Assembly: GCA_937863685.1 (NCBI GenBank)
Contig: CALMGM010000005.1
Span: forward strand, 682,001-746,000
DNA: 64,000 bases
DNA from: an uncultured bacterium
GTDB taxonomy: Bacteria; Edwardsbacteria; AC1; EtOH8
Direction of reading: 5' to 3'
Shown: in pieces, positions 15,252-17,456 of the stretch
Position numbering within the stretch: position 1 is the stretch's first letter
How the letters are laid out: every line of letters begins with the position of its first letter
Notes under the pieces: model-generated
Database searches by the model: none
The model's input: the letters and a program-made list of their open reading frames with translations, nothing else
Told to the model about the DNA's origin: nothing
Program-made: the position numbers and the translations under genes

Positions 15252-15327
15252 GTCATTCCCGCGAATGCGGGAATCCAGGAAATATTCTATAGATCAAAAC
15301 ATGGATTCCCATTTGCATGGGAATGAC
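15252..15327. repeat. Doublet of ATTCCC..GGGAAT palindromes in inverted orientation
   Basis: GTCATTCCCGC-GAAT-GCGGGAATCC and GGATTCCCAT-TTGC-ATGGGAATGAC. Confidence 0.9.
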
Positions 15328-15346
15328 AAAGGGAAAGGAACACCTT

Positions 15347-16450
15347 ATGCCCAGCAAAGTATACTTCGCCAATTTCCGGGAGACTGCCGAACGGAACATG
15401 TTTGACAAGATCGATCTCCTGCTGGACCAGCTGCCGCTGTCCTCGGCCTTCCAAAAGGGCGACCTGGTGGCGGTCAAGGTGCATTTCGGCGAGCGGGGCA
15501 ACACCGCCTTCATCCCCTCCTACTACGTCCGCCGGGTGGTAGACAAGATCAAGGAGTTTGGCGGCAAGCCATTCGTCACCGATGCCAACACCCTGTATGT
15601 AGGCACCCGCTCCAACTCGGTCGATCACCTGGAGACCGCCGCCATCCACGGCTTCACCCGCGACACCCTGGGCTGTCCGGTGCTGATAGCCGACGGCCTG
15701 CGGGGCGGCTCCTACGTGGAGGTCGAGGTGGACGGCAGACATTTCAAGAAGGTAAAGCTGGCCCACGATCTGGTCAAGGCCGACTCCATAATCTGCGTTA
15801 CCCATTTCAAGGGACACGAGCTGGCTGGCTTCGGCGGTTCGATCAAGAACCTGGGGATGGGCGGAGGGGCCCGGGGCGGCAAGCTGGCCATGCATTCCGA
15901 TGTGGCCCCCATCATCAAGGCCGAAAAGTGCATCGCCTGCGGCAAGTGCGCCGCCAATTGCCCGTCCGACGCCATCACAATAGACAAGTTCGCGGCTATT
16001 GACCCAAAAAAATGCATCGGCTGCGGCTCCTGCATCGTGGTCTGCCCCACCCACGCCTGCCGCAACGGCTGGGACAGCGGGGCCCAGAAGATGCAGGAGA
16101 AAATGGTGGAGCATCTGGCCGGGTTTGTGAAGCACAAAAAGGACCGGATCGCCTATCTTAATTTCATCATGAATGTCTCTCCGGCCTGCGACTGCTACGG
16201 CCACGCCGATCACGCCATAGTGCCGGACATCGGCATCTGCGCCTCGCTGGATCCGGTGGCCATTGACGCCGCCAGCAATGCCTTGGTGATGGCCGCGCCC
16301 GGGCATAGGGATTCGGAGCTGAAGAAGGCCCTGGAGCCAGGCAGCGATAAGTTCCGTGACATATATCCCGGCACGGACTGGAATGTGCAACTGGATCATG
16401 CTGAAAAAATGGGGCTGGGCAGCAAGAAATATGAGTTGGTGGCGATTTAA
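15347..16450 (+). CDS. DUF362 domain protein with 4Fe-4S ferredoxin domain
   Basis: VAVKVHFGERGNTAFIPSYYVRRVV; CIACGKCAANCP and CIGCGSCIVVCP clusters. Confidence 0.9.
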   Translation: MPSKVYFANFRETAERNMFDKIDLLLDQLPLSSAFQKGDLVAVKVHFGERGNTAFIPSYYVRRVVDKIKEFGGKPFVTDANTLYVGTRSNSVDHLETAAIHGFTRDTLGCPVLIADGLRGGSYVEVEVDGRHFKKVKLAHDLVKADSIICVTHFKGHELAGFGGSIKNLGMGGGARGGKLAMHSDVAPIIKAEKCIACGKCAANCPSDAITIDKFAAIDPKKCIGCGSCIVVCPTHACRNGWDSGAQKMQEKMVEHLAGFVKHKKDRIAYLNFIMNVSPACDCYGHADHAIVPDIGICASLDPVAIDAASNALVMAAPGHRDSELKKALEPGSDKFRDIYPGTDWNVQLDHAEKMGLGSKKYELVAI

Positions 16451-16495
16451 TAGTATCTATTGTTAACGATTTATACCAAAGGTTAGATTCTTCTC

Positions 16496-16907
16496 TGCCA
16501 TTTCTGTCCGGGCAGAAATGGCAAAAGACCCGCCGGGGGCGCAGGGCTTAACATTTATTTCACGGCTTATGTATCTAACGATGTTTTGGCGAGGATAGCA
16601 CACGCTACGAAGCATTTATTGATTTTGTATTGTTTTCGGCTGTCACTCGCACCGCGCCCCCGGACCCCATTTTGGGACGTGGAGTCCGCTTAGCTTAACC
16701 TGTAAATATTTACAGGTTAAGCTGGGTCTTAGGGGACGGCTACGGTCAGCGTTGCTGGTACATTAGCCGTAGTAATAATAAGAATGGCGGGTGAAAATTT
16801 TGCTATCCTTATTTATGCTAGTTTGCCGTCTCCTAAAACTTCTCTTTGGAGCTTTCTCTTAGTTATAAGAGAAAGCGGGAAGCCCTCATCCCGGTAAATT
16901 ATAATTT
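16496..16907. other. Highly structured non-coding region (candidate structured RNA or decayed structured element)
   Basis: At least eight inverted repeats, several nested; no plausible protein-coding ORF. Confidence 0.6.
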
Positions 16908-16931
16908 GAGTTATAAATCGCAGTAATTAAA

Positions 16932-17456
16932 GTGCAGTCCCGCATTCCCATACTAAAAACCGCCGGATTAATTCTGCGCACTCCCCGGCCCGAAGAGATG
17001 CTCTATATTAAAAAACTCTGGGCCGACCCTTTGACCATGGCCGAGGTGGGCGGACCCATTCATCTCACCGACGAACAGGCCCATAAATGGTACGCCCGGA
17101 TGGTCTCCCCAGGAAGCGAGACGGATAGGTATTTTCTAATATTCAATAATGATGACCAGCCGATGGGCGAGATCAGCTTTCATCGCTATGAGCAATCTAC
17201 TGGCACCGCCGAGTTCAACATCAAAATCGAACATTGCTATCGCGGCCAGGGCTATGCCAGCAAGGCCATTCCCCTGCTGCTCAGATATTTCTTCTTCGAT
17301 TTCGGGGGGAAAGTAATGTGCGACCCGGTGGCGTTGGACAACCGGCCCGGCCAGAAGGCCCTTGTCAAACTCGGCTTCAAAAAGGATGCTTCCCGCCGGA
17401 ATGTCTGCCTTTTAAGGATGACCAAAGAGGAATTCATTGATATCTACGGAGAATAA
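16932..17456 (+). CDS. GNAT family N-acetyltransferase (RimJ/RimL type)
   Basis: LILRTPRPEEM, EHCYRGQGYASKAIPLLLRYFF, DNRPGQKALVKLGFKK; GTG start uncertain. Confidence 0.85.
   Translation: MQSRIPILKTAGLILRTPRPEEMLYIKKLWADPLTMAEVGGPIHLTDEQAHKWYARMVSPGSETDRYFLIFNNDDQPMGEISFHRYEQSTGTAEFNIKIEHCYRGQGYASKAIPLLLRYFFFDFGGKVMCDPVALDNRPGQKALVKLGFKKDASRRNVCLLRMTKEEFIDIYGE

What the first reader, a model, noticed from the sequence alone, without database searches (positions are those of the whole stretch)
16451..16931. ~480-bp gene-free region built from nested and tandem stems: candidate undescribed structured RNA or decayed structured element
In an otherwise tightly packed region, this gap holds no credible ORF but at least eight inverted repeats: 16496-16506/16513-16523 (11 bp, loop TCCGGG); long-range 16533-16542/16654-16663 (CCGGGGGCGC/GCGCCCCCGG, 10 bp, enclosing ~111 nt); 16661-16665/16684-16688; a 32-bp palindrome at 16692-16723; long-range 16729-16740/16825-16836 (12 bp with one G-U) enclosing two further hairpins (16740-16745/16767-16772 with inner CAGC-GTT-GCTG, and 16777-16782/16808-16813), a layout like a three-way junction; 16851-16861/16866-16876 (11 bp, tetraloop GTTA); and 16876-16880/16889-16893. 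Long-range helices enclosing local hairpins are typical of folded RNAs and not of ordinary spacers. It sits directly upstream of a GNAT gene with no clear RBS, so a cis-regulatory role is also possible. I could not match it to a known RNA class by eye.
Basis: partly seen in the sequence, partly recalled or inferred. Interest (0 to 1): 0.75.

Follow-up and report, generated by a model that had tools for sequence, protein, structure and literature searches.

The report
Modular hairpin-rich mobile DNA repeat
The gene-free stretch is one copy of a previously unnamed family of short, hairpin-packed DNA repeats that has spread between the genes of a little-known bacterial group (Candidatus Edwardsbacteria), so it looks like a mobile repeat in the style of BOX or MITE elements and not a one-off RNA gene.

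Summary
The stretch is not a single-copy RNA gene. Window 16491-16881 is one copy of a dispersed repeat: two more near-full copies and several partial ones in this genome, many in three same-genus genomes, left-end or right-end copies in other genera of the family. It is modular: left hairpin, an inverted-repeat domain around ~98 nt of variable sequence, a palindrome, a second inverted-repeat domain, right hairpin. Modules are gained, lost and swapped. Orthologous sites lack the element; one interior is 104/104 identical at unrelated sites in two species whose genes are ~90-95% identical. Copies are intergenic, in both orientations, also between co-directional genes (pstS-pstC, dnaB-mlaE). Outer stems are conserved with compensatory changes; interiors fold no better than shuffles on either strand, so the three-way junction is not supported. 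No Rfam match. Y1, DDE_3 and TnpB families, the only mobilisers sought, are absent from the host. Most likely a new family of non-autonomous, BOX/MITE-like palindromic repeats, here separating two genes that nearly abut in a relative; mobilising enzyme unknown.

The parts
16491..16881 (+). whole repeat element (best estimate of its limits)
   Evidence: Near-full matches in the same genome cover query 41-431 and 47-428 of 16451-16931; alignments lose similarity outside these limits.
16496..16523 (+). left hairpin H1, 11-bp stem, loop TCCGGG
   Evidence: Present in nearly all left-end copies; stem kept by paired changes (C-G to T-A, C-G to A-T).
16524..16532 (+). conserved linker AAAGACCCG
   Evidence: AAAGA invariant in all 18 aligned A-module copies.
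16533..16548 (+). 5' arm of long-range helix P2 (CCGGGGGCGCAGGGCT)
   Evidence: 98% mean identity between near-full copies (with linker); one position is G-C in 9 and A-U in 7 of 18 copies.
16549..16652 (+). module A interior, variable in sequence, nearly constant in length
   Evidence: Mean identity 67% among ten near-full copies, not alignable to other genera, yet AAAGA..GGACC measures 142-146 nt in the same genus, 142-143 in a second genus and 137-138 in a third, with one exception of 161; folding z scattered around 0.
16653..16666 (+). 3' arm of helix P2
   Evidence: 95% mean identity between near-full copies.
16692..16723 (+). 32-bp palindrome P4
   Evidence: Conserved in all near-full copies; in right-half copies the stem is kept with three pairs changed on both sides.
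16729..16740 (+). 5' arm of long-range helix P5
   Evidence: Kept in copies with module B; whole P5 domain cleanly absent in two copies of a related genome.
16741..16824 (+). module B interior, variable
   Evidence: Module length 120-125 nt in all copies, two variable stretches around a GCGG.TTGA anchor; folding z scattered around 0.
16825..16836 (+). 3' arm of long-range helix P5
16851..16876 (+). right hairpin HR (GCTTTCTCTTA GTTA TAAGAGAAAGC)
   Evidence: Conserved; also found alone elsewhere in the family; in several copies its 5' half is replaced by a CCTCACCC..GGGAGAGG hairpin.
15317..16450 (+). upstream gene, 377-aa protein with two 4Fe-4S ferredoxin-type motifs (family name not tested)
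   Evidence: orthologues in eight related genomes
16932..17456 (+). downstream GNAT-like acetyltransferase gene (name from the finding, not tested)
   Evidence: in genome G002 it follows the upstream gene almost directly, without the element

Best explanation
The region is one copy of a lineage-specific family of non-autonomous, modular, palindrome-rich interspersed repeats (BOX/MITE/BIME-like). It lies between two co-directional genes that are nearly abutting in a related species. Copies spread to intergenic sites in either orientation and swap or lose modules; each module is bounded by an inverted repeat or is a hairpin, which would be the part recognised by a mobilising or recombining enzyme acting in trans. 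When it lies inside a transcription unit it will be transcribed as a hairpin-rich RNA and may alter expression of the downstream gene. Shown: dispersal, modularity, empty sites, stem conservation, orientation independence, lack of conserved interior folding. Inferred: the trans-acting enzyme, its identity, and any effect on GNAT expression.
For: Dispersed copies in own genome, two near-full at 80-81% identity plus partials and in same-genus and same-family genomes. Empty orthologous sites: window site in G002, L024, L029, L017 and L005 sites, pstS-pstC in G002 and G003, where 19 and 18 bp separate the matches. Element in G000 (dnaB-mlaE site) and in G002 (tRNA spacer) has an identical A interior, 104/104, and 201/203 over the A-P4 part, while genes of the two species are about 90-95% identical. 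The same tRNA-Leu/tRNA-Gly spacer carries element parts in opposite orientation in G000 and in G001/G002. Modules lost or replaced. Copies lie between genes, in both orientations, beside unrelated genes.
Against: No target-site duplication could be fixed because spacers are too diverged, so exact ends are unknown. No carrier element or mobilising enzyme was found: no Y1, DDE_3 or TnpB match in the host genome, but other transposase families were not searched. Near-constant interior length despite sequence divergence is not expected for a purely decaying parasite. Some differences at shared sites could be gene conversion or flank deletion and not transposition.
Confidence: 0.78

Rival explanations
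1. It encodes a functional structured RNA (a mobile or multi-copy non-coding RNA), with conserved helices and length-locked loops.
For: Strong folding; + strand folds 24 kcal/mol better; compensatory changes in H1, P2, P4 and P5; module lengths nearly constant.
Against: Interiors fold no better than shuffles on either strand and share no structure. In the four clear helices wobble pairs hardly outnumber A-C mismatches (10 G-U against 8 A-C cells), so there is no clear sign that one strand folds as RNA. Whole domains are dispensable; no fixed orientation to flanking genes. Compensatory changes in palindromes can also arise from template switching or from selection at the DNA level (general knowledge).
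Confidence: 0.1
2. Non-autonomous derivative of an IS200/IS605-type or REP-associated tyrosine transposase (HUH) system that recognises the end hairpins.
For: Hairpin ends, no evident inverted terminal repeats joining left and right ends; Y1 transposase genes exist in same-genus genomes.
Against: No Y1_Tnp match in the host genome or in G005, both of which carry copies. The Y1 loci had no match to the element, and the flanks that could be read carry other, unrelated palindromes. No GTRG head before the hairpin as defined for REPs (PMC2817692; sequence). No TnpB match in ten genomes.
Confidence: 0.08
3. Cis-regulatory leader (riboswitch or attenuator) of the downstream GNAT gene.
For: Lies directly upstream of GNAT with no clear RBS (finding).
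Against: Absent upstream of the GNAT orthologue in G002; other copies lie beside pst, dnaB/mlaE, dxs, tRNA and other unrelated genes in both orientations (gene names by reading the translations); no Rfam hit.
Confidence: 0.02

Closest known systems
BOX elements of Streptococcus pneumoniae / S. suis (PMC3049150)
   Same: Composite of end modules plus optional internal modules, hairpin-rich, intergenic, presumed non-autonomous mobile elements, expected to be co-transcribed.
   Different: Sequence relation to BOX was not tested; different phylum; module sizes differ; low copy number here (about ten per genome); here end hairpins themselves are exchanged and the inverted-repeat domains enclose length-constant variable interiors.
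MITEs, Correia elements, ERIC and similar palindromic interspersed repeats (as described in PMC3049150)
   Same: Short, inverted-repeat-bearing, intergenic, strong folding, insertion polymorphism.
   Different: No target-site duplication or parent transposon identified; several nested inverted-repeat domains in one unit.
REP sequences / BIMEs with RAYT transposases (PMC2817692)
   Same: Dispersed intergenic palindromes combined in mosaics.
   Different: No GTRG head, no Y1/RAYT match in the host genome, copy number about ten and not over a hundred.
Rfam structured RNA families
   Same: Base-paired helices with compensatory changes.
   Different: No family matched at the gathering threshold; best E-value near 1.

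Membership tests
MITE (non-autonomous inverted-repeat transposable element) | short, no coding capacity, several dispersed copies | tested here: met
MITE (non-autonomous inverted-repeat transposable element) | insertion polymorphism at orthologous sites | tested here: met
MITE (non-autonomous inverted-repeat transposable element) | terminal inverted repeats at the two ends of the whole element | tested here: not met
   Left and right ends are two different hairpins; inverted repeats bound the internal modules only.
MITE (non-autonomous inverted-repeat transposable element) | target-site duplication | tested here: inconclusive
   Spacers too diverged to fix the junctions.
MITE (non-autonomous inverted-repeat transposable element) | shared ends with an autonomous transposon in the host | tested here: inconclusive
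   None seen around the copies; only Y1, DDE_3 and TnpB families were searched.
BOX-like composite repeat | modular architecture with optional internal modules between end modules | tested here: met
   module B absent in L024/L029; A-only and P4-B-HR-only copies
BOX-like composite repeat | sequence homology to boxA/boxB/boxC | not tested
   BOX consensus not compared
REP/BIME with RAYT | GT(A/G)G head directly before the palindrome | tested here: not met
   Sequences before H1 are CTCTG-like; definition from PMC2817692.
REP/BIME with RAYT | RAYT/Y1 gene in the genome flanked by the same repeats | tested here: not met
structured non-coding RNA | conserved fold supported by covariation | tested here: inconclusive
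   Met for the outer helices H1, P2, P4, P5; not met for interiors; no strand asymmetry.
structured non-coding RNA | transcribed as a discrete RNA | not testable with these tools
   no expression data
known Rfam family | score above gathering threshold | tested here: not met

The most novel reading that the evidence does not exclude
The length-locked but sequence-variable interiors of modules A and B, each held between strongly conserved inverted arms and differing between copies at the same site, are functional variable segments (for example recognition or guide-like segments, or spacers of fixed length in a nucleoprotein complex) of a new kind of mobile nucleic-acid element.
Probability: 0.06. 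Interest if true: 0.8.

Novelty: new member of a known kind. Interest (0 to 1): 0.38.

Why it matters
It adds a new, apparently undescribed repeat family from an uncultured phylum to the small set of modular interspersed repeats, explains why this spacer looks like an RNA gene to folding-based scans (a warning for ncRNA prediction), and offers a case where module swapping, orientation flips and fixed-length interiors can be followed across four closely related genomes.

Tried and rejected
Rfam match: none. GNAT riboswitch or leader: element absent at the orthologous gene in G002 and other copies beside unrelated genes. Three-way junction: inner hairpins kept only partly, interiors z around 0. 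RAYT/IS200 origin: no Y1 gene in the host and no match of the element at Y1 loci. TnpB/reRNA: none in ten genomes. IS630/Tc1-like (DDE_3): none in the host; this had been prompted by the TA-flanked absence of module B in L024/L029, which may equally be a deletion. Plasmid and phage relatives: none; one weak plasmid hit lies in a Sphingopyxis coding sequence and is taken as chance. Three genome hits outside Edwardsbacteria/UBP2 share only the short search pattern and are taken as chance. Scans of viral contigs returned no answer three times, so viruses other than the phage records were not checked. Integron attC and XerCD dif sites were considered from memory for the palindrome and not pursued.

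Full report
What was checked. There is no credible ORF in the gap. Folded as a single strand, the 481 nt give -185.2 kcal/mol on the + strand and -161.2 on the - strand, z = -8.3 and -8.4 against dinucleotide shuffles. Rfam 15 gives nothing.

It is a repeat. A search of the window's own genome (2.72 Mb, 14 contigs) with the 481 nt finds two further near-full copies at 80-81% identity (C12:83861-84248, C5:602955-603332) and partial ones: left half only (C5:932661, C1:26554), right half only (C5:456122, C5:659452), right hairpin only (C5:456656, C10:145582) and a pair of parts at C2:15918/16239. In 59 relatives, matches occur in all three same-genus genomes and, as left-end or right-end sequence, in other genera of the same family; none outside the family at E <= 0.001 by BLAST. 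A covariance model of the left end confirms this and adds a divergent subfamily in the genus with different hairpin and arms. An exact pattern scan of GTDB genomes places the family in Candidatus Edwardsbacteria / UBP2; the three other hits share only the pattern. Phage and plasmid collections hold no convincing relative. The library holds only 13 papers that mention Edwardsbacteria, none with the word in title or abstract.

Anatomy. Aligning the copies gives this order: left hairpin H1 (16496-16523); AAAGACCCG; helix P2 arms (16533-16548 / 16649-16663) enclosing a variable interior A; a spacer; palindrome P4 (16692-16723); GGGTCTTA; helix P5 arms (16729-16740 / 16825-16836) enclosing variable interior B; AAAACTTC; right hairpin HR (16851-16876) and CGGGAA. 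Among ten near-full copies mean identity is 0.98 and 0.95 in the P2 arms (the first with its linker), 0.93 in P4, but 0.67 in interior A. Module A (AAAGA to GGACC) is 142-146 nt in the window's genus, 142-143 in a second genus and 137-138 in a third, with one 161-nt exception, although interiors cannot be aligned across genera; module B is 120-125 nt. This constancy is unexplained; I did not test it against a neutral indel model.

Modularity. Two copies in genome G001 lack the P5 domain exactly, reading GTCTTA-AAACTT. Left-half copies end after P2 with other sequence; right-half copies begin with a P4-like hairpin whose stem carries changes on both sides. In several copies half of H1 or HR is replaced by another hairpin, CCTCACCC..GGGAGAGG.

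Mobility and recombination. The window's site is empty in G002, where the GNAT gene follows the upstream gene almost directly; G003 has unrelated sequence there. Sites of L024, L029 and L017 are empty in other species, that of L005 in G002 and G003; in the pstS-pstC spacer only 19 and 18 bp separate the flanking matches in G002 and G003, but G000 and G001 hold an element. The extra sequence at occupied sites can exceed the element, so part of the difference may be flank gain or loss. The G000 copy at dnaB-mlaE and the G002 copy in a tRNA spacer have identical A interiors (104/104), whereas genes of the two species are about 90-95% identical: recent copying or conversion between unrelated sites. 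The pst-site copies of G000 and G001, at the same place, share only 54% of interior A although the adjacent pst genes are 83-93% identical. Between the same tRNA-Leu and tRNA-Gly genes the element points one way in G001 and G002 and the other way, as separate B and A parts, in G000.

RNA or DNA? Outer helices show compensatory changes: H1 in three pairs, P2 in two, P4 in three, P5 in one. But the interiors fold no better than shuffled sequence on either strand (about 20 A and 11 B interiors, z scattered around 0), the inner hairpins of the proposed three-way junction are only partly kept, and in the four clear helices G-U and A-C cells are 10 and 8, giving no sign that one strand is selected as RNA. 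Copies lie between genes, next to unrelated ones, sense and antisense (by my count, about eight sites to four where both neighbours point the same way; the ORF caller there is crude). This fits DNA-level palindromes that are tolerated in transcribed spacers.

Mobiliser. Y1 transposases occur in sister genomes but not in the host or G005; the element does not match around them and the flanks that could be read carry other palindromes. DDE_3 is absent from the host and the TnpB C-terminal family from ten genomes. Other families were not searched, so the enzyme stays unknown.

Comparison. It works most like BOX elements, which are composite, hairpin-rich and thought to be non-autonomous mobile repeats (PMC3049150). 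It is not a REP by the GTRG-head and RAYT criteria (PMC2817692). It cannot be filed as a classical MITE because whole-element terminal inverted repeats were not found and a target-site duplication could not be shown. A genome from another phylum or at least another family (G057) holds its own dispersed repeat with a similar start, hairpin then AAAACGCGCTGGGGCCGCAGG; whether that is homologous is open.

Verdict. Ordinary in kind, new as a family; moderately interesting because of module swapping and the fixed-length variable interiors.

Noticed in passing
L119, L129 and further places in genome G057 (outside the window's family): A dispersed repeat (21 BLAST places in one genome) with a similar start: hairpin GGTGCCTTTTG..CAAAAGGCACC followed by AAAACGCGCTGGGGCCGCAGG. 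Possible distant relative of the window element.
   Followed up: partly
L128 and L134 (genome G002), also G000 C2:25621 and C5:1058905: Divergent subfamily in the same genus: hairpin GTTCTTTCTTGGCGCCAAGAAAGAAC and P2 arms CCGGGGGCTTTG/CAAAGCCCCCGG, changed in concert relative to the window copy.
   Followed up: partly
L014, L021, L026, L031 (genome G005): Left-end copies in a third genus lie between outer inverted repeats TTGATTATCTAAACGTTTCAGG / CCTGAGAAGATTAGATAGTCAA, which look like the ends of another small mobile element enclosing them.
   Followed up: no
L018 about 1380-1480, L008 downstream flank: Another apparent repeat family beside the element: GCGACGAGCTTTTTTCTTTTTGGTTCTTTTTC..CAAAAAAGAAAAAGAAC; no match in the window.
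   Followed up: no
L058, L061, L062, L065: Y1 transposase-like genes in sister and family genomes with different palindromic repeats around them (L062 and L065 in tandem arrays), suggesting several REP-like systems in this lineage.
   Followed up: no
window 16467-16475 and 16912-16920: A 9-bp perfect inverted repeat CGATTTATA/TATAAATCG just outside the element on both sides; may be chance or the trace of an outer end.
   Followed up: no
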